A stretch of 64,000 nucleotides of DNA from Longimicrobiales bacterium (lineage in GTDB: Bacteria > Gemmatimonadota > Gemmatimonadetes > Longimicrobiales > Gaopeijiaceae). Below, piece after piece: positions 29,395 to 40,238 of the stretch (its first letter is position 1; each line of letters begins with the position of its first letter). The stretch covers positions 661,340 through 725,339 of the forward strand of contig OX638356.1 of the NCBI GenBank assembly GCA_951813395.1, read 5' to 3'. Both the position numbers and the translations under genes were made by a program. The notes beneath the pieces were generated by a model. It saw only the letters and a list, made by a program, of their open reading frames with translations. It was not told where the DNA came from and searched no databases.

Positions 29395-29967
29395 TCAGCC
29401 CCCGTCCGAGTCGACCGCCGCGCCGATCGCACGGGCGTACCAGTCGAGCGTCTCGATGAAGCCCGCGAAGGACTTCTCGTAGTGCGGCTCCACGGGGTTG
29501 CCGTCTTCGCCAAAGCTGCGTGACACCTTCGAGACATGCATCCCGGCCACCGGCAACGCCTTGAGGCGCAGGAAGAGGAGTTGCAGGTGGTTGTGCACCT
29601 GGACACCGCCGAACCCCCCCGCCGACACGGTCACGATGCCGACCGGCTTGCGGAACCACTCGCCATAGATGTAGTCAAGCGCGTTCTTGAGCACGCCGGG
29701 GATGGAGCCGTTGTATTCGGGGCTGACGACCACCATCGCGTCGGCGGCCTTCACCGCCTCCGAGAAGCGCAACAGCCCCGGCGGCGGGTCGTCCCGCATG
29801 TGCAGGCGCTCCTCCATGATCGGCAGGTCGAGGCTGCGCAGATCCAGCAGCGGAGCATCGGCGCCCGCCTGCTCGAGCCGGTGGCCGGCGAAACGGGCGA
29901 CCCTGATGGACTGGCGTGCGCGGCGCACCGAGCCGAGGAGAACCGGTATGCGGAGCGGGCGGTTCAC
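29395..29967 (-). CDS. NADPH-dependent FMN reductase family protein
   Basis: This 190-aa flavodoxin-like reductase shows LLGSVRRARQS for FMN phosphate binding and VVVSPEYNGSIPGVLKNALDY, the hallmark of the SsuE/ArsH/chromate-reductase group. It reduces FMN or quinones with NAD(P)H. The GTG at 29967 has GGGAG six bases upstream and overlaps the ligase stop (GTGA), so it is translationally coupled to the CoA ligase. It could supply reduced flavin to, or protect, the aromatic pathway encoded divergently (inference). Confidence 0.88.
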   Translation of the reverse strand: MNRPLRIPVLLGSVRRARQSIRVARFAGHRLEQAGADAPLLDLRSLDLPIMEERLHMRDDPPPGLLRFSEAVKAADAMVVVSPEYNGSIPGVLKNALDYIYGEWFRKPVGIVTVSAGGFGGVQVHNHLQLLFLRLKALPVAGMHVSKVSRSFGEDGNPVEPHYEKSFAGFIETLDWYARAIGAAVDSDGG

Positions 29968-31577
29968 GGCGAACTCCCGGACGCACGGGGCGCGGTCCGC
30001 GACTCGGGGTCCCGGTTCGACACGCGCGGCTCCCGCTTCAGCGCCCCGCGGTCGACCTTGCCCAGATGGGTGCGGGGCAGGTCGGAAAGGATGTGGATCG
30101 CGCGAGGGCGCTTGTGGGACTCCAGCCGGGTGGCGACGTGCGCGCCAAGGTCGGCTTCGTGCGCGGGTGCCGGGCCGGCCGCCGCATTCCCCCCGTCCTC
30201 GCGGGCGGCGAGCACCACGAACGCCTCCGGAACCGTCAGCCCGGCTTCCGTCTCGATCCCCACCACCGCCGCCTCCCTTACGTGCCGGTGTTGCAGCAGG
30301 CACTCCTCGGCCTCCTGGGGCGAGAACCACTTCCCCGAGACCTTGAGCAAGTCGTCGTCGCGTCCCTGGTAGCTGAAATACCCGTCCCGGTCGCGCGTCA
30401 TCATGTCGCCCGAAATGTACCACTCCCCGGCAAAGGCGTGACGGGTCGCTTCCGGGTGTTGCCAGTAGCCGTGGGCCAGGGATCCGCCCCGCACCCGCAT
30501 CCGGCCGATCTCGCCGGGCTCCACCTCGTTGCCGTCGTCGCCGCAGAGCACGACCTCGAAGCCGGGAACCGCCGTGCCGAGCGTCCCGGGACGGACCCGG
30601 CCGGGCCGGTTCGAGATGAAGACGTGCCACATCTCGGCCGTGCCGAGGCCGTCGAGGAGCTCGACGCCGAAGGTATCGTCCCAGCGGCGGTGCATGGTGG
30701 CGGGCAGGGGTTCTCCGGCCGAGGTGGAAAGCCGCAGACAGCTCAGGTCCCGTGCGTCCGCGTCCGGGTGCGCGACCATTCGGTTCACCATGGTGGGGAC
30801 GTTGACGAGGATCGTGGGGCGGTGGCGGGCGATCTGCGCGAAGAGTTCTGCGGCGGTGCAACGCTCCGGAAAGAGCACCGCCGAGGCTCCCGCGGCGAGG
30901 GGGAAGAAGAGGTTGGAGCCGGTGGCGTACCCGAAGTAGAGCTTGGGCACCGAGAGGGTGATGTCGTCGGGCGTGTAGCGGAGCACGCACTTCGCGTAGC
31001 ATTCGGTAGTGTTGGCGAACGACGCGTGGCTCTGAATCACACCCTTGGGGCGCCCCGTCGTGCCGCCGGAGAACAGCCAGATCGCAGGGTCGTCAAAATG
31101 TGAAGCAAAGTTGACATAATGTAAACTGGAGTTGTCAACAAGGGCGTCGTCGTCGGGCGTACCGAGGACGATAAGGCGGGGTGGACCGGGCGAGCCCTGC
31201 GCCGCCTTCAGGAAGGTGCGCGCATGATCCGCGTGTATCACGGCCGCCGCGGCGCGGGTGTACGCGTACAGTTCGCGGATACGCGACGCGCCCAGGTAGC
31301 AGTTCACCATGACTCCGACCGCACCCATCTTCAGCGCGCCGAAGAGAGCGGCCGGGAAGTCCGGCACGTCCGGCAGACCCACCAGGACTCGTTCCTCGGG
31401 TCGCACACCCGCCGCTTCGAGGGCGTTGGCGAACCGGTTGGCGCGGGCTTGCAGCGCCGCATAGGTGACCGTGCCGTCCCGCGTCCGCAGCGCGATGCGC
31501 TCTCCGAGCCCCTCGCGAACCCGGTCGTCCAGGAAATAGTCGGCGATGTTGAATGCGTCGGGCGGGTCGAAGGGCAT
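29964..31577 (-). CDS. Aryl-CoA ligase, likely 2-aminobenzoate-CoA ligase
   Basis: This 537-aa member of the adenylate-forming superfamily has the AMP motif SGGTTGRPKG near residue 168, the gate motif LLDGLGTAEMW, and the hinge GYFSYQGRDDDLLKVSGKWFSP. The catalytic lysine lies near the C-terminus (LGKVDRGALKR). The N-terminus NIADYFLDDRVREGLGERIAL is typical of the benzoate-CoA ligase group. It lies 61 bases from a divergent operon containing tryptophan dioxygenase, kynureninase and a 2-aminobenzoyl-CoA-type monooxygenase. I therefore infer that anthranilate is the acid activated. A low-GC patch lies inside the gene at about 31095-31140. Confidence 0.85.
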   Translation of the reverse strand: MPFDPPDAFNIADYFLDDRVREGLGERIALRTRDGTVTYAALQARANRFANALEAAGVRPEERVLVGLPDVPDFPAALFGALKMGAVGVMVNCYLGASRIRELYAYTRAAAAVIHADHARTFLKAAQGSPGPPRLIVLGTPDDDALVDNSSLHYVNFASHFDDPAIWLFSGGTTGRPKGVIQSHASFANTTECYAKCVLRYTPDDITLSVPKLYFGYATGSNLFFPLAAGASAVLFPERCTAAELFAQIARHRPTILVNVPTMVNRMVAHPDADARDLSCLRLSTSAGEPLPATMHRRWDDTFGVELLDGLGTAEMWHVFISNRPGRVRPGTLGTAVPGFEVVLCGDDGNEVEPGEIGRMRVRGGSLAHGYWQHPEATRHAFAGEWYISGDMMTRDRDGYFSYQGRDDDLLKVSGKWFSPQEAEECLLQHRHVREAAVVGIETEAGLTVPEAFVVLAAREDGGNAAAGPAPAHEADLGAHVATRLESHKRPRAIHILSDLPRTHLGKVDRGALKREPRVSNRDPESRTAPRASGSSP

Positions 31578-31638
31578 CGAGCGGGCGCTTTGGGCAGGAG
31601 GGTGGCGATTATGTTTAGAAACGAAGGAGGGATCGTCA

Positions 31639-32495
31639 ATGGAGAACCACCATTGGGGCAATGCCACGTGGACCGGGATCAGGCGTCTTGGTCTTGGGCC
31701 CGGCGGTGCGGGCGAGAGCGCCCACACCCCACACGGCTCCCGAGTCGTCGCCCTGCTTCCGGTCGGCGCGGTCGAGGCGCACGGCCCCCACCTACCGCTG
31801 ACCACCGACGTCATCATCGCGACCGCCGCCACCGGCGCCGCGCTGCCCGGTCTGCGGCGACTGGGCCTCCATCCCGTCGTTCTGCCTCCCTTCCCGTACA
31901 CGGCCGCCCCCTTCGCCGCCGGCTTCCCGGGAACGATCTCGGTGCGGCCGGCCACCTTCACCGCGCTGCTGGCCGACGTTGCGGCCTCCCTGGAGCAGCA
32001 GGGGGCGGCCGCGCTGGTCGTGGTCAACGCGCACCTGGATCCTGCGCACCTGGCCGCGATCCGGAGCGTGGTGCGTGACAGCGCGGCCGCGGTCGCCGCG
32101 GCGCCATTGCGGCCCCGGGACGATGCCCCCGTGCGGGACGCGGCTTTCGCCCCCCGCCGACCCATGCCGGTCATCCACCCGGATCTCACCGAACGGCGTT
32201 GGGCCTCGCGCCTCACCGCCGAGTTCAGGAGCGGCGCGTGTCACGCGGGATGCTACGAAACCTCGGTGGTCATGGCCGCGGCCCCCGAGCTGGTGCGGGA
32301 CGCGGCGCGGCGCGAGCTGGCCGCGAACCCGGCGTCCCTCTCGGCCGCGATCCGTGACGGCGCGGCCACCTTCGAGGAAGCGGGGGTGGAGGAGGCGTAT
32401 TGCGGGGACCCCGCCGCCGCGACCCGCGAAGAGGGCGAGAGGACCGTTGCGGTACTGGGCGGGATCGTCGTGGACTCGGTGGCCGGGGCCTTCTC

Positions 32496-32499
<4 letters not shown>
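31639..32499 (+). CDS. Creatininase-family amidohydrolase, candidate N-formylkynurenine deformylase
   Basis: This 286-aa protein has the creatininase signature LLPVGAVEAHGPHLPLTTD near residues 37-55 and a second metal site in NAHLDP (where the family usually has NGHGGN). The distal glutamate is in HAGCYETSVVM. The family are binuclear-metal amidohydrolases, and one characterised branch (archaeal ArfB) removes formyl groups. The gene heads an operon encoding tryptophan dioxygenase and kynureninase that lacks a cyclase-type KynB, so deformylation of N-formylkynurenine is my inferred role. The ATG at 31639 follows GAAGGAGGG. The 61-base gap to the ligase should hold divergent promoters. Confidence 0.8.
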
Positions 32500-34628: not shown

Positions 34629-35778
34629 CGGCGGCGGGTTGTCGCTGGACCCGGTGGCGGCGTTCATCGAGGCGTCGCACCGGGAGTACCGGGAGCGGGT
34701 CCTGGCGTTCTGCGAAGAGGAGATCGGGGAGGGGCGCGATCCGGACACCGATGCGGCGGCTCGGGCGCGCGCGCGAGAGCTGGTGGGACGGATGGGGCAG
34801 GCGGGGCTCTTTCGTCCCATTGCCGAGGGGGATGTGCGGGGCTGTCTGGTGGCGCGCGAGGTGCTGGCGTGGTGGTCGCCGCTCGCGGACGCGGTCTTTG
34901 CGCTGCAGGGGCTCAGCGCGACACCGGGGCTGATCCGGGACGAGGATCCCGGTGGATGGGCGGAGCGCGCCGTGGCGGGCGAAGCAATGGGCGCATTCGC
35001 CATGACCGAGTGGGAGGCGGGGTCCGATGTCGGGTCCATGACCACCGTTGCGGTGCCGGACGGGTCCGGGTTCAGGCTGAACGGTGGGAAGGCCTTCATT
35101 TCCAATGCGGGCATCGCGGATTTCTACGTCGTCTTCGCTTCGACCGACCCGGGTGCGGGAACCTGGGGGCTCTCGTGCTTCGTCGTGCCGGCGGACGCGG
35201 ATGGGTTCGAGTTCACGGGATCGCTGGTCATGAGCGCTCCGCATCCGCTTGGCGAGGTGAAGTTCAACGACTGCGTCGTTCCGGGTGCTGCTCTTCTGGG
35301 CGATGTGGGGGGTGGGTTCAAGATCGGAATGGCGACGCTCGACCGGTTGCGCCCCACGGTGGCTGCGGCGGCCTGCGGCATGGCCGGAAGGGCGCTCTGG
35401 GAGGCCGTGGAGCACGCGCGCGGACGGGAACAGTTCGGAAAGCGCCTGGCCTCGTTCCAGTTGATCCAGGAGAAGCTGTCCTCTTCGGCGATCGAGCTGA
35501 CCGCCGGGCGCCTGCTGGCCTACCGGGCCGGGTGGGAGAAGGACCGGGGGGCGGAGCGGATCACGATGGAGGCGGCCATGGCGAAGGCGTTCTCGACCGA
35601 GGCCGCGCAGCGGATCGTGGATCGGGCGGTACAGGTGCTGGGGGGGCGGGGAGTCCTTGCGGGCCATCCGGTCGACCACCTGTACCGGAGCGTGAGGGCG
35701 CTGCGGATCTACGAGGGGACGACGGAGATCCAGCACCTGATCGTCGGCGGCGGGCTCGTGCGGGGGGATGCGGGGTGA
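34621..35778 (+). CDS. Acyl-CoA dehydrogenase
   Basis: This 385-aa FAD enzyme has the family blocks FAMTEWEAGSDVGSM (FAD/substrate loop), a middle beta domain, and RGREQFGKRLASFQ. The catalytic base is in IYEGTTEIQ near the C-terminus. It should desaturate the acyl-CoA made after aromatic-ring reduction. I set the start at TTG 34621, which has CGGAAG seven bases upstream and overlaps the hydratase stop by 8 bases; a second TTG at 34639 is possible. The gene overlaps the next by GTGA. Confidence 0.88.
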   Translation: MFDGGGLSLDPVAAFIEASHREYRERVLAFCEEEIGEGRDPDTDAAARARARELVGRMGQAGLFRPIAEGDVRGCLVAREVLAWWSPLADAVFALQGLSATPGLIRDEDPGGWAERAVAGEAMGAFAMTEWEAGSDVGSMTTVAVPDGSGFRLNGGKAFISNAGIADFYVVFASTDPGAGTWGLSCFVVPADADGFEFTGSLVMSAPHPLGEVKFNDCVVPGAALLGDVGGGFKIGMATLDRLRPTVAAAACGMAGRALWEAVEHARGREQFGKRLASFQLIQEKLSSSAIELTAGRLLAYRAGWEKDRGAERITMEAAMAKAFSTEAAQRIVDRAVQVLGGRGVLAGHPVDHLYRSVRALRIYEGTTEIQHLIVGGGLVRGDAG

Positions 35779-38198
35779 AGGTCAATGTGGTCGGCGGCGG
35801 CCCGGGCGGGCTTTTTGCCGCGCTGCTGCTCAAGAAGGCCGACCCCGCGCGGCAGGTCGACTTGTTCGAGCGCAACCGTCCGGATGACACGTTCGGTTTT
35901 GGCGTGGTCTTCTCCGATGCGACGCTGGAGGAGGTGGCCAGGGCGGATCCGGCGACGTTTCGCGCCATCGAGGAGCGCTTCTACCACTGGGACGACATCC
36001 ACATTCACTACCAGGGCGAACTCCTGGAGTCGACCGGGCACGGGTTCGCGGGACTGTCGCGGCGCGCGCTCCTGCTGTTGCTGCAGCGGCGCTGTCGGGA
36101 GATGGGGGTGGGGCTGCACTTCGAGACCGAGATCGGCGATCCGTCTGTCGGAGAGACTGCACGCGCGGTCCTGGCCTCGCGCTTTCTCGACGCCGACCTG
36201 GTCATCGGAGCGGACGGGCTCAACAGCGTGGTGCGGGAGCGGTTTGCGGAGACGTTCGAGCCGGCGGTCGACCTGCGTCCCAACCGCTTTGTCTGGTTGG
36301 GCACGACGCGGCCGTTCCCCGCGTTCACCTTCTACTTCCGCGAGGATGAGCACGGGCTGTGGCGCGTGCACGCCTACCAGTACGATGCCTCCGGCAAGGC
36401 GACCTTCATCGTCGAGGCCACCGGGAGCACATGGCGCCGGGCCGGCATGGACACGGCCGGCGAGCAGGACACGGTACGCTTCCTGTCGGCGCTCTTCGCG
36501 GAGGAACTCGACGGGCACCCGCTGATCTGCAACCGTTCGGTCTGGCGACGGTTTCCCACGATTGTGAACGCGCGCTGGTCGGCGGGGAATGTCGTCCTGA
36601 TCGGGGATGCTGCCCATACGGCGCACTTTTCGGTGGGGTCGGGGACCCGGCTGGCCATGCTGGACGCCATTGCGCTGGCAGGGGCGTTGGATGGGGCCGG
36701 TCGCGGGGAGAATGGGCAATCCCTCGCCGATGCCCTCGTCGCCTACGAAGAGGAGCGCCGTCGGCCGGTGGAGTCGCTGCAGCGCGCGGCCCATGCGAGT
36801 CTGCAATGGTTCGAGGACACCGAGCGCTACTTCCGTCTCGATCCCGTGCAGTTCGGCTTCTCGCTCCTGACCAGGAGCCTGCGGATCTCGCACGAGAACC
36901 TGCGGGAGCGGGACCCGGCGTTCGTGGACCGGGTGGACCGATGGGTGGCACGGCAGGCGGAAGAGCAATCCGGTGTGACCATTGCGGAGAACGAGGCGAC
37001 GCTGGGGATCGATCGCGGGGCCGGAGTGGAGGAGAACCCCCCCCGCACCGGCGCACGCCTCGACGCCGGTGTGCCTCCGCCCCCGCTGTTCACCCCTTTT
37101 CGCCTGCGGGAACTGGTGCTGGCCAACCGGGTGGGGGTTTCGGCGATGTGCCAGTACTCGGCCGCAGACGGTACGGTCGACGACTGGCACCTGGTCAACC
37201 TCGGATCGCGCGCGATCGGCGGCGCGGGGCTGGTGATGGCGGAAATGACCGCGATCGGGCGGGACGGCCGCATCTCGCCCGGGTGCGCCGGCATCTACGA
37301 CGAGGGTCATGTGGCGGCATGGCGGCGCCTGACCGGGTTTGTGAAACGCTTCACAAGCGCGCGCGTCGGCATCCAGCTTGGCCACGCGGGACGCAAGGCA
37401 TCGACGCGGCTGGACTGGGAGGGCCCCAACGAGCCCTTGCCGGAGGGCGGCTGGCCCACCGTGTCGGCGTCGCCGATCGGGTACTTCGAGCACAGCCCGG
37501 TGCCGGCTGAACTCGACGAAGCGGGGATGGACGCGCTGGTTGGCGACTTCGAGCGCGCCACGGCATTGGCGGTCCAGGCCGGCTTCGACATCGTCGAGAT
37601 CCACATGGCGCACGGGTATCTCCTGGCGAGTTTCCTCTCGCCACTGACCAACCAGCGGACGGACCGCTACGGTGGCTCGCTCGGGAACCGCCTGCGATTC
37701 CCATTGCGAGTGGTCGGCGCGGTGCGCTCGCAGTGGCCGGACGAACGCCCGCTCTCGGTGAGGCTGTCCGCGGTGGACTGGTGGCCTGGCGGCAACGAGC
37801 CCGGGGATGCGGTGGAGATCGCGCGTGCGCTGAAGGCTTGGGGCTGCGATGTGGTCGACGTTTCCGCCGGACAGACGGTACCCTACCAGCAGCCCAGGTA
37901 CGGGCGGCAGTTCCAGACGCCGTTTGCCGACCGGATCCGGCACGAGGTCGGGATCGCGACGATGGCGGTCGGCAACATCTCTTCGTTCGAGGACGTCAAC
38001 GGGATCATCGCGGCGGGGAGGGCGGACCTCTGCCTCATGGCGCGCGCCCACCTCTGGGATCCATACTGGACGAGGCACGCCGCGTATGCGCTGGGGTATC
38101 CGCTACGGTGGCCCCCGCAATACGAAACACTGGACAACTACACGCCGCGGTTCGGTTCGGCCGCCGGCGCATACGGACCGGACACCGGAGATGAGTGA
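35775..38198 (+). CDS. 2-aminobenzoyl-CoA monooxygenase/reductase-type fusion (FAD monooxygenase + OYE domain)
   Basis: This 807-aa two-domain flavoenzyme begins with an FAD monooxygenase domain (about 1-400): VNVVGGGPGG at residues 3-12 and the FAD motif VVLIGDAAHTAHFSVGSG. From about residue 437 follows an old-yellow-enzyme reductase domain (LFTPFRLRELVLANRVGVSAM, HAGRKAS, AVDWWPGG). The same architecture is annotated as salicylyl-CoA 5-hydroxylase/oxidoreductase or as 2-aminobenzoyl-CoA monooxygenase/reductase. Kynureninase and tryptophan dioxygenase next door favour the latter, which hydroxylates and dearomatises 2-aminobenzoyl-CoA. The GTG start at 35775 overlaps the ACAD stop. Confidence 0.88.
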   Translation: MKVNVVGGGPGGLFAALLLKKADPARQVDLFERNRPDDTFGFGVVFSDATLEEVARADPATFRAIEERFYHWDDIHIHYQGELLESTGHGFAGLSRRALLLLLQRRCREMGVGLHFETEIGDPSVGETARAVLASRFLDADLVIGADGLNSVVRERFAETFEPAVDLRPNRFVWLGTTRPFPAFTFYFREDEHGLWRVHAYQYDASGKATFIVEATGSTWRRAGMDTAGEQDTVRFLSALFAEELDGHPLICNRSVWRRFPTIVNARWSAGNVVLIGDAAHTAHFSVGSGTRLAMLDAIALAGALDGAGRGENGQSLADALVAYEEERRRPVESLQRAAHASLQWFEDTERYFRLDPVQFGFSLLTRSLRISHENLRERDPAFVDRVDRWVARQAEEQSGVTIAENEATLGIDRGAGVEENPPRTGARLDAGVPPPPLFTPFRLRELVLANRVGVSAMCQYSAADGTVDDWHLVNLGSRAIGGAGLVMAEMTAIGRDGRISPGCAGIYDEGHVAAWRRLTGFVKRFTSARVGIQLGHAGRKASTRLDWEGPNEPLPEGGWPTVSASPIGYFEHSPVPAELDEAGMDALVGDFERATALAVQAGFDIVEIHMAHGYLLASFLSPLTNQRTDRYGGSLGNRLRFPLRVVGAVRSQWPDERPLSVRLSAVDWWPGGNEPGDAVEIARALKAWGCDVVDVSAGQTVPYQQPRYGRQFQTPFADRIRHEVGIATMAVGNISSFEDVNGIIAAGRADLCLMARAHLWDPYWTRHAAYALGYPLRWPPQYETLDNYTPRFGSAAGAYGPDTGDE

Positions 38199-38982
38199 CC
38201 GCGAGGAATCGATGAACTACCAGCGTTTCGCGATGCTACCCGAACTGCTGTCCCTGCAACGGCCGCTGTCGGACCCGCCGGAGCACGACGAGATGCTCTT
38301 CATCATCGTTCACCAGGTCCACGAGTTGTGGTTCAAGGCGGCGCTGCATGAACTCGACCACGCCAGCGACCTTCTCGTTGGCGGCGATGAGGCCCGGGTG
38401 GCCGCGACCCTCAAGCGCGTGCGTTCGATCATGAAGGTGCTGGTGGGCCAACTGGACATCCTGGAGACGATGACACCGGTCGAGTTCGAGTCCTTCCGCG
38501 ACCGCCTCGACACGGCCAGCGGCTTCCAGTCGGCCCAGTTCCGCGAGCTGGAGTTCGCGCTGGGAATCAAGCGCGCATCGGTCCTCAAGGCGTTTCCCGA
38601 CCCCGACGAACAGCGGCGCCTGAGGCGTAGACTGGAGGAGCCATCGCTCTGGGACGCCTTTCTGCGGTTCATGGTCGGCAGAGGGTACGAGGTCCCGGAT
38701 CGTGCGCTGGCTCGCGATCTGACCGAACCCGTAGCGCCCGACCCCGAGTTGCAGGGAATGCTGGTCGATGCCTACCGCTCGGATCCGGGGCTGATCAACC
38801 TGTGCGAACGGCTGGTGGACCTGGACGAGGGGTTCCAGGAGTGGCGCTACAGGCACATCAAGATGGTGGAGCGCACGATCGGCAACAAACCGGGGACGGG
38901 CGACAGCGCCGGGGTGGCCTACCTGGTGACCACGATGAACGCCGCGTTTCCGGATCTGTGGGAGATGAGGTCGGCGCTTTGA
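38191..38982 (+). CDS. kynA: Tryptophan 2,3-dioxygenase
   Basis: This 263-aa all-helical haem enzyme has the highly conserved HQVHELWFK at residues 41-49, the FESFRDRLDTASGFQSAQFRELE block and the haem-ligand region WRYRHIKMVERTIG, then GTGDSAGVAYL. It opens the indole ring of tryptophan to N-formylkynurenine, the first step of the pathway encoded here. The start at 38191 overlaps the upstream gene by 8 bases; an internal ATG at 38212, after GAGGAA, is an equally plausible start. It is coupled to kynureninase by a TTGA overlap. Confidence 0.95.
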   Translation: MSDREESMNYQRFAMLPELLSLQRPLSDPPEHDEMLFIIVHQVHELWFKAALHELDHASDLLVGGDEARVAATLKRVRSIMKVLVGQLDILETMTPVEFESFRDRLDTASGFQSAQFRELEFALGIKRASVLKAFPDPDEQRRLRRRLEEPSLWDAFLRFMVGRGYEVPDRALARDLTEPVAPDPELQGMLVDAYRSDPGLINLCERLVDLDEGFQEWRYRHIKMVERTIGNKPGTGDSAGVAYLVTTMNAAFPDLWEMRSAL

Positions 38983-40238
38983 CGGAAGGGGACGCCGGCA
39001 GGCACCCTGCCAGACGCGGCGATCCGGTGCCCGGGCGACTGGCCCGCCACTATTCCCGCTTCCGGGTCGCGCAGCGGGTGTTGCTTACCGGGCACTCCCA
39101 CCAGGCGTGGCCGGACGTGGCGTTTTCCGCTCAGCAGCAGGCGTGGCTGGACGCGGCCGAGCTCGTGGACGACAAGTGGGGACGGGCTTTCGAGATGGCC
39201 GACGAAGTGCGCGACGGCTTCCGACGCCTGCTGGACGACCCCGACGGGCACATCGCGCTGGGTCAGAACACGCACGAGCTGGTGATCCGGTTCCTGTCGG
39301 CGCTGCCGTTGCGGGAGCGGCCGCGCCTGGTAACCACCGACGGCGAGTTCCACACGATCCGCCGCCAGCTCGACCGGCTGGAGACGGAAGGGGTCGAGAT
39401 CGTCCGGGTGGCGACGGGCGCAGGCGACGGGGCGAGCGTGCCGGGGGCGGTGGCCGAGGGGATCGTGGACGCCCTGGATGACCGCACCGCCGCCGTGCTG
39501 GTTTCGTCGGTGCTCTTCCGGGACGCGCGCATCGTGGAAGGGTTGGACGAGGTGGCTGCGGCGTGTGCGAACGTCGGCGCCGAACTGCTCGTGGACGCAT
39601 ACCATTCGCTCAACGCAGTGCCGTTTTCGGTTGTGGAAACGGGGCTGCAGGACGCATTTGTCGTGGGGGGCGGGTACAAGTACTGCCAGTTGGGGGAAGG
39701 GAACTGCTTCCTGAGGTTCCCGCGCGATTGTGCCCTGAGCCCGGTCCTGACTGGGTGGTTCGCCGAGTTCGGAACGCTGGCGAGCGGGCCGCGAGAGGGC
39801 GGGGCCGCAACCGATTCCCGAGTCGTTTACGGCGAAGGGCACCACCGGTTCGCCGGCTCCACCTACGACCCGGTCAGCCACTACCGGGCCGCCGCGGTCT
39901 TCAGGTTCTTTCGGGAGCAGGGACTGGACGCGCAGCGCCTGCGGAGGATCGGCCTGGCGCAGGTCCGGCGACTGGCTGCCGGCGTGGACGCGCTGGACCT
40001 GGATCCGGGGGTGTTGAAGAGGGACCGCGCCGTGCCCCTGTCCCGGCGGGGAGGCTTCCTCGTCGTGGACACGCCGATGGCGCCGCAGATCTGCTGCAAG
40101 CTGCGCGGACTCGGTGTCTACGCCGACTTCCGCGGCCGGGCGCTGCGCCTGGGGCCCGCCCCGTACGTGACCGGGGAGCAGCTGGACGGGGCGGTGACCG
40201 CGCTGGGGGAGGCGGTGGCGGGGCTGGAAGGGTCGTAG
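38979..40238 (+). CDS. kynU: Kynureninase-like PLP enzyme
   Basis: This 419-aa fold-type I PLP enzyme has a cofactor aspartate in LLVDAYHSLNAVPF and the PLP lysine in GGGYKYCQLGEGNCFLRF, near residue 234. The GYKY pattern and the position after tryptophan dioxygenase identify a kynureninase releasing anthranilate and alanine. It is divergent from the classical E. coli-independent KynU families, so the symbol is by role. I chose TTG at 38979, which overlaps the kynA stop and has GAGATGAGG upstream; GTG at 39027 is the alternative. Confidence 0.82.
   Translation: MTEGDAGRHPARRGDPVPGRLARHYSRFRVAQRVLLTGHSHQAWPDVAFSAQQQAWLDAAELVDDKWGRAFEMADEVRDGFRRLLDDPDGHIALGQNTHELVIRFLSALPLRERPRLVTTDGEFHTIRRQLDRLETEGVEIVRVATGAGDGASVPGAVAEGIVDALDDRTAAVLVSSVLFRDARIVEGLDEVAAACANVGAELLVDAYHSLNAVPFSVVETGLQDAFVVGGGYKYCQLGEGNCFLRFPRDCALSPVLTGWFAEFGTLASGPREGGAATDSRVVYGEGHHRFAGSTYDPVSHYRAAAVFRFFREQGLDAQRLRRIGLAQVRRLAAGVDALDLDPGVLKRDRAVPLSRRGGFLVVDTPMAPQICCKLRGLGVYADFRGRALRLGPAPYVTGEQLDGAVTALGEAVAGLEGS

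What the first reader, a model, noticed from the sequence alone, without database searches (positions are those of the whole stretch)
31639..32499. Creatininase-fold protein as a new kind of N-formylkynurenine deformylase
The pathway needs an enzyme between tryptophan dioxygenase and kynureninase, yet no cyclase-type KynB or arylformamidase is encoded. The operon's first gene is a creatininase-family metallohydrolase with metal ligands largely intact and an altered NAHLDP motif. A creatininase-family deformylase (ArfB) is already known, so formamide hydrolysis is within the fold's chemistry.
Basis: inference. Interest (0 to 1): 0.7.

Follow-up and report, generated by a model that had tools for sequence, protein, structure and literature searches.

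The report
Deformylase in a variant kynurenine pathway
A bacterium seems to break down tryptophan with an unrelated enzyme doing the formyl-removal step, probably in a different order from the textbook pathway, which would add a new version of a widespread metabolic route.

Summary
Window 31639-32499 is a creatininase-family protein (PF02633, 168 bits), metal-ligand positions kept, NAHLDP motif present. It heads an operon for tryptophan to anthraniloyl-CoA; the genome has no KynB at family cut-off. In 297 Gemmatimonadota genomes orthologs occur in 67 of 186 with tryptophan dioxygenase (TDO) and 2 of 111 without, both cut by a contig edge. They are anticorrelated with KynB. A deformylase role in this pathway is likely (about 0.7). 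The exact role first proposed is only partly supported. The family sits next to the anthranilate-CoA ligase (65 of 80 loci), never next to TDO. It is missing from at least six genomes that keep TDO and the kynureninase-like gene, itself so divergent that the kynureninase model misses it. Two genomes keep TDO, this kynureninase, the ligase and the creatininase without the downstream ring monooxygenase. Best reading: an inverted order, in which the divergent kynureninase cleaves N-formylkynurenine to N-formylanthranilate and the creatininase deformylates that for the ligase (0.4), against direct N-formylkynurenine hydrolysis (0.3). All function is inferred; nothing was assayed.

The parts
31639..32499 (+). 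creatininase-family protein (CREAT), the candidate deformylase, 286 aa
31774..31809 (+). metal-site motif EAHGPHLPLTTD (E46, H48, D57)
   Evidence: invariant in A1; aligned to creatininase E34/H36/D45
32026..32043 (+). NAHLDP motif (H132, D134)
   Evidence: aligned to creatininase H120 and E122
32239..32265 (+). CHAGCYETS motif (H202, E207)
31578..31638 (.). 61-base gap between divergent ligase and creatininase starts
   Evidence: divergent pair kept in 60 of 80 loci
29964..31577 (-). benzoate-CoA-ligase-family gene, read as anthranilate-CoA ligase (LIG)
   Evidence: TIGR02262 455 bits, cut-off 375
29395..29967 (-). NADPH-dependent FMN reductase-like gene
   Evidence: PF03358
32496..33254 (+). 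SDR dehydrogenase (start codon inferred)
   Evidence: PF00106
33251..33712 (+). RidA-type protein
   Evidence: PF01042
33807..34628 (+). enoyl-CoA hydratase
   Evidence: NF006107 382 bits, cut-off 330
34636..35778 (+). acyl-CoA dehydrogenase (start uncertain)
35775..38198 (+). FAD monooxygenase-OYE fusion, read as 2-aminobenzoyl-CoA monooxygenase/reductase (ACMR)
   Evidence: NF006101 1052 bits, cut-off 1078
38191..38982 (+). tryptophan 2,3-dioxygenase (TDO)
   Evidence: PF03301 197 bits (over its cut-off) and TIGR03036 266 bits (cut-off 391)
38982..40238 (+). divergent kynureninase-like PLP enzyme (KYNU variant; start uncertain, frame open from 38802)
   Evidence: no TIGR01814 match; profile of its family best matches P. 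fluorescens kynureninase 1qz9, 8.8e-24

Best explanation
The protein is a two-metal formamide hydrolase of a tryptophan-to-anthraniloyl-CoA pathway that has no KynB (deformylase role in this pathway: about 0.7). Most likely order: TDO makes N-formylkynurenine; the divergent kynureninase cleaves it directly to N-formylanthranilate plus alanine; the creatininase removes formate from N-formylanthranilate; the divergently transcribed ligase makes anthraniloyl-CoA; the fusion monooxygenase and beta-oxidation enzymes take it on. Shown: gene content, conserved metal-site residues, co-occurrence with TDO, anticorrelation with KynB, pairing with the ligase, divergence of the kynureninase. Inferred: all catalysis, metal content, substrate and reaction order.
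For: Co-occurrence: orthologs in 67 of 186 TDO+ and 2 of 111 TDO- Gemmatimonadota genomes; the 2 exceptions end at a contig edge inside the operon. Of 38 tested genomes from several phyla, TDO in 36 and KynB-like at 140 bits or more in 5. Replacement: among 126 genomes with TDO and ACMR, 54 have the ortholog only, 45 KynB only, 8 both, 19 neither. KynB lies within 2.5 kb of TDO in 27 of 148 genomes with a listed TDO place; only 1 of those 27 holds an ortholog, on another contig with its own TDO-KYNU-ligase set. Only 3 of 67 ortholog+TDO+ genomes have any TIGR01814 kynureninase match, against 91 of 119 ortholog-free TDO+ ones. Within one family, of 19 TDO+ genera 12 carry the ortholog, 7 canonical kynureninase, 1 both, 1 neither (p 0.0017). 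Order: ligase within 1.5 kb of the ortholog in 65 of 80 loci, TDO in 0 of 80. TDO plus variant kynureninase without ortholog, ACMR or KynB in at least 6 genomes (G006, G140, G153, G189, G192, G287); G192 is in the window's own genus. TDO-KYNU-ligase-creatininase without ACMR even at 1e-20 in G225 and G271.
Against: No biochemistry. Phylogeny confounds the counts: KynB genomes are mostly one family. 47 of 186 TDO+ genomes have neither ortholog nor KynB, so an unknown third deformylase must exist in places (for example G062, whose cluster has everything but a deformylase), which weakens arguments from absence. 8 TDO+ACMR+ genomes hold both. Gene order need not follow reaction order. Fifteen of 80 loci have no ligase within 1.5 kb, mostly Acidobacteriota. 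A 45%-identical paralog sits in an unrelated hydantoinase cluster (G070).
Confidence: 0.4

Rival explanations
1. One reading: the creatininase hydrolyses N-formylkynurenine to kynurenine, replacing KynB in the standard order; the divergent kynureninase then acts on kynurenine.
For: Same co-occurrence and KynB anticorrelation; textbook order of reactions (recalled); a bacterial creatininase-annotated formamidase exists (BrbF, PMC9478397, passages read).
Against: Ligase, not TDO, is the neighbour; at least 6 genomes keep TDO plus the variant kynureninase without it, one in the window's genus; KynB by contrast lies beside TDO or canonical kynureninase.
Confidence: 0.3
2. Lower-pathway hydrolase: it opens the ring or hydrolyses an intermediate after ACMR, as the creatininase-family enzyme IolN is annotated to do with a ring diketone.
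For: ACMR present in 37 of 38 ortholog genomes and strongly linked within TDO+ genomes (odds ratio 10.7); joint loss of ortholog and ACMR in G192; weak similarity to the IolN model, 31.8 bits.
Against: G225 and G271 keep it with TDO-KYNU-ligase without ACMR; it does not explain missing KynB; many ACMR+ genomes lack it (75 of 139).
Confidence: 0.13
3. Amidase for some other N-acyl or ring-opened anthranilate derivative (for example from quinolines or indoles), not tied to tryptophan.
For: Pairing with the ligase; by analogy, the quinaldine upper pathway of Arthrobacter Rue61a feeds anthranilate to an anthranilate-CoA ligase (PMC3534580, passages read).
Against: TDO is present in 67 of 69 ortholog genomes of the phylum and 36 of 38 wider genomes; no other ring-opening oxygenase was noticed in the sampled loci, though this was not searched systematically.
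Confidence: 0.12

Closest known systems
Creatininase (creatinine amidohydrolase, P. putida; PDB 1j2t, 1q3k)
   Same: Fold (model aligns at Z 19.0, rmsd 3.6, 235 residues) and the aligned ligand positions
   Different: TIGR04448 70.5 bits against 235; E122 is Asp; W154 and W174, mutated in the PDB entries, are not kept (alignment)
BrbF, bacterial riboflavin-pathway formamidase (PMC9478397)
   Same: A protein first annotated as creatininase that was shown to be a formamide hydrolase (passages)
   Different: Different pathway and substrate; no sequence comparison made here
ArfB, archaeal formamidase of riboflavin/F420 synthesis (recalled as creatininase family)
   Same: Deformylation of an arylamine-like substrate (recalled)
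   Different: Different pathway; not compared here; the BrbF paper says BrbF and ArfB lack sequence similarity
KynB, bacterial kynurenine formamidase (PF04199/TIGR03035)
   Same: Would serve the same step or a neighbouring one
   Different: Different protein family; KynB neighbours TDO or canonical kynureninase, this family neighbours the ligase
2-aminobenzoyl-CoA pathway of Azoarcus evansii (PMC4539516, passages)
   Same: Ligase, ACMR and beta-oxidation enzymes
   Different: There described for anthranilate; here joined to TDO, a divergent kynureninase and the creatininase

Membership tests
Creatininase family (PF02633) | Match above Pfam gathering score | tested here: met
   167.9 bits against 31.3
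Creatininase family (PF02633) | Creatininase fold | tested here: met
   AlphaFold2 model pLDDT 82.1; creatininase chains top at Z 19.0, next fold 9.6
Creatininase family (PF02633) | Ligand residues of the two-metal site | tested here: met
   E46, H48, D57, H132, D134, E207 invariant in 17 of 17, aligned with E34, H36, D45, H120, E122, E183; metal binding itself not tested
Creatinine amidohydrolase proper (TIGR04448) | Equivalog cut-off | tested here: not met
   70.5 bits against 235
MftE (TIGR03964) | Equivalog cut-off | tested here: not met
   91.8 bits against 172
IolN (NF041098) | Equivalog cut-off | tested here: not met
   31.8 bits against 245
KynB (TIGR03035) | Equivalog match of this protein | tested here: not met
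   not among its matches at E 0.001
Arylformamidase by function | Hydrolysis of N-formylkynurenine or N-formylanthranilate | not testable with these tools
   needs an assay
Kynureninase (TIGR01814), for the neighbour 38982-40238 | Equivalog cut-off 246.4 | tested here: not met
   no family matched at E 0.001; orthologs L077 and L305 unmatched by TIGR01814 at E 0.1, L119 28.6 bits
Kynureninase, for the neighbour | Kynureninase fold and PLP lysine | tested here: inconclusive
   family profile best matches 1qz9, 8.8e-24, K233, D205, R384, R389 invariant; model aligns to 1qz9 at Z 39.1 but to cystine lyase C-DES at 39.6, a tie

The most novel reading that the evidence does not exclude
A second kynurenine pathway without kynurenine: TDO, then a dedicated N-formylkynurenine-cleaving kynureninase giving N-formylanthranilate and alanine, then a creatininase-fold N-formylanthranilate deformylase coupled to anthranilate-CoA ligase, spread over Gemmatimonadota, Acidobacteriota, Planctomycetota and Myxococcota.
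Probability: 0.38. Interest if true: 0.82.

Novelty: new variant of a known kind. Interest (0 to 1): 0.62.

Why it matters
N-formyl removal is the second step of tryptophan breakdown by this route, and a gene for it is not evident in many genomes: here 47 of 186 TDO-bearing Gemmatimonadota genomes had neither this family nor a KynB-type protein. This family would fill the gap in 56 more (TDO+, ortholog+, KynB-) and in members of several other phyla. If the order is inverted, kynurenine is never made, so gene-based predictions of kynurenine from such bacteria would be wrong. Four purified proteins decide it.

Tried and rejected
Own-genome KynB: the only PF04199 protein has an N-terminus with a lipoprotein-like signal and a PQQ-type neighbour (own reading) and reaches only 36 bits on TIGR03035; rejected as the pathway enzyme, though not disproved. 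Arylformamidase of the alpha/beta type: all 9 PF07859 matches lie in frames of about 700-810 aa; rejected, but a distant unlinked esterase could still act.

G070 looked like a counter-example (creatininase plus ACMR in a genome with TDO-KynB). Its locus holds a luciferase-ACMR-like triple fusion and hydantoinase genes, so it was set aside as a paralog; it was not in the ortholog set (76 bits against 83 or more).

G110 and G159, orthologs without TDO: contigs end inside ACMR and inside the kynureninase gene. L125 (G324), the other TDO-less genome of the 38, was not explained.

ACMR counts used a typed list of genomes with segments of 560 bits or more, so G137 (487 bits) counted as lacking ACMR although a partial gene is present. 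The ortholog cut (83 bits or more per segment, next 76) was set by eye; KynB calls used E 1e-25, which includes 94-150-bit proteins that may not be KynB. TDO places beyond the listed rows were not available for the distance counts (148 of 186 genomes). Genus counts behind one search were made by eye.

A GC3-based gene caller worked poorly on L316; ORFs were read directly instead. Papers: searches listed no paper that I could see linking a creatininase-family protein to formylkynurenine or formylanthranilate (listings read; not every listed paper was opened); only open-licence PMC papers are held. PMC9058172 (passages) draws formylkynurenine to formylanthranilate by kynureninase as a RAST prediction, so the reaction as an idea is not new. 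PMC4243253 gave no passages for the terms asked.

Full report
What is there. The frame at 31639-32499 codes for 286 residues and is a clear member of Pfam Creatininase, 168 bits against a cut-off of 31. It misses the cut-offs of every functional model it touches: MftE 92 of 172, creatininase 70 of 235, IolN 32 of 245. It is the first gene of a tight operon (mostly overlapping or abutting frames): SDR, RidA, enoyl-CoA hydratase, acyl-CoA dehydrogenase, an FAD monooxygenase-OYE fusion, tryptophan dioxygenase (TDO) and a kynureninase-like gene. A benzoate-CoA-ligase-family gene starts 61 bases upstream on the other strand. The fusion, ligase and beta-oxidation genes are those of the 2-aminobenzoyl-CoA pathway known from Azoarcus evansii (PMC4539516, passages; gene content of that cluster otherwise recalled). 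So the cluster reads as tryptophan to anthraniloyl-CoA and on to central metabolism.

Metal site and fold. Seventeen orthologs align without variation at E46, H48, D57, H132, D134, H202 and E207. In the profile alignment with solved creatininases these fall on E34, H36, D45, H120, E122, H178 and E183. The E122 position is Asp here. The tryptophans W154 and W174, the sites of creatininase mutants in the PDB titles, are not kept. An AlphaFold2 model (pLDDT 82) aligns to creatininase at Z 19.0 with 3.6 A over 235 residues, well above the next fold at 9.6. NAHLDP is not a decayed motif but the family norm: 76 exact and 9 NAHFDP among 120 members.

No KynB in this genome. The genome is one contig of 4.09 Mb, 97.9% complete. 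TIGR03035 reaches 36 bits against 223, on a lipoprotein-like cyclase far from the operon. PF07859 matches are all in frames of about 700-810 aa.

Distribution. In 297 Gemmatimonadota genomes at least 80% complete, orthologs (83 bits or more, with a gap to 76) occur in 69. TDO occurs in 186, KynB-type proteins at E 1e-25 in 119, the fusion monooxygenase (ACMR) in 139 by my cut. Of the 69, 67 have TDO; the two others stop at a contig edge inside the operon. I tested 38 of these 80 genomes, chosen for missing TDO in the locus or for distance: TDO in 36, ACMR in 37, KynB-like at 140 bits or more in 5.

Replacement signature. Among 126 genomes with both TDO and ACMR, 54 have the ortholog without KynB, 45 KynB without ortholog, 8 both, 19 neither (Fisher p 3e-11). 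KynB lies within 2.5 kb of TDO in 27 of 148 genomes with a listed TDO place, and only G271 of these also has an ortholog. In G271 the two systems stand apart: canonical kynureninase-TDO-KynB on one contig, TDO-variant kynureninase-ligase-creatininase on another. These counts are confounded by descent, since most KynB genomes belong to one family. Inside another family that mixes both, 12 of 19 TDO+ genera carry the ortholog, 7 canonical kynureninase, one both and one neither (test).

The unexpected partner. The operon's kynureninase-like protein matches no NCBIfam model at E 0.001 and Pfam only at 24 bits. Two orthologs are unmatched by TIGR01814 even at E 0.1. Its family profile nevertheless finds P. 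fluorescens kynureninase first, at 8.8e-24, and keeps the PLP lysine, an aspartate and the C-terminal arginines. The predicted structure does not separate kynureninase (Z 39.1) from cystine lyase (39.6). Of 67 TDO+ genomes with the creatininase ortholog, 3 have any TIGR01814 match, against 91 of 119 TDO+ genomes without it. So this lineage differs in both its deformylase and its kynureninase.

Which formyl compound? Two results point past N-formylkynurenine, and a third against a role after ACMR. First, neighbours: in 80 loci the ligase lies within 1.5 kb of the creatininase in 65 (divergent in 60), TDO in none, while TDO and the variant kynureninase sit about 1 kb apart, centre to centre. The gene pairs are thus TDO-kynureninase and creatininase-ligase. 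Second, loss: G006, G140, G153, G189, G192 and G287 keep TDO plus the variant kynureninase but have no creatininase ortholog, ACMR or KynB (loci). G192 is in the window's genus, and there the ligase, creatininase, SDR, RidA, dehydrogenase and monooxygenase are absent between FMN reductase and the kept hydratase, TDO and kynureninase. Third, G225 and G271 keep TDO, kynureninase, ligase and creatininase with no ACMR at 1e-20, which speaks against a role after ACMR. An order TDO, kynureninase, creatininase, ligase fits all three. That kynureninases can cleave formylkynurenine is recalled; PMC9058172 draws the reaction as a prediction (passages).

Limits. Forty-seven of 186 TDO+ genomes have neither candidate, and G062 carries the whole pathway with canonical kynureninase and neither deformylase nearby, so an unknown deformylase exists somewhere and absence is weak evidence. 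Eight genomes with TDO and ACMR hold both candidates. Most genomes are metagenome bins or of unknown make. No ligand, assay or expression data exist here. I put 0.7 on a deformylase role in this pathway, split about 0.4 for N-formylanthranilate and 0.3 for N-formylkynurenine.

Known or new. Formamide hydrolysis by a creatininase-annotated protein is known: BrbF of riboflavin synthesis (PMC9478397, passages) and ArfB (recalled as creatininase family). No paper listed by my searches of the open library joined such a protein to the kynurenine pathway. I rate it a new variant of a known kind: a known fold and chemistry, in a pathway variant that looks undescribed.

Noticed in passing
window 38982-40238: The kynureninase-like protein is missed by the kynureninase model TIGR01814 although its family profile best matches a solved kynureninase; it travels with TDO in many genomes.
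   Followed up: yes
L267:7489-15745 (G070): A 45%-identical creatininase paralog beside a 969-aa luciferase-monooxygenase-OYE triple fusion, hydantoinase A and B genes and a periplasmic binding protein: perhaps an N-heterocycle degradation cluster.
   Followed up: partly
L316 (G192, window's genus): Apparent natural deletion of ligase, creatininase, SDR, RidA, acyl-CoA dehydrogenase and monooxygenase, with FMN reductase, enoyl-CoA hydratase, TDO and the kynureninase-like frame kept.
   Followed up: partly
L308 (G074): TDO is split into fragments by a stop or frame breaks next to an intact variant kynureninase frame.
   Followed up: no
L281 (G062): Complete TDO, canonical kynureninase, ACMR, ligase and beta-oxidation cluster with neither creatininase nor KynB nearby: a further deformylase is probably still unknown.
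   Followed up: partly
L001:1384-2208 (own genome): PF04199 cyclase with a lipoprotein-like N-terminus beside a PQQ-dehydrogenase-like gene.
   Followed up: no
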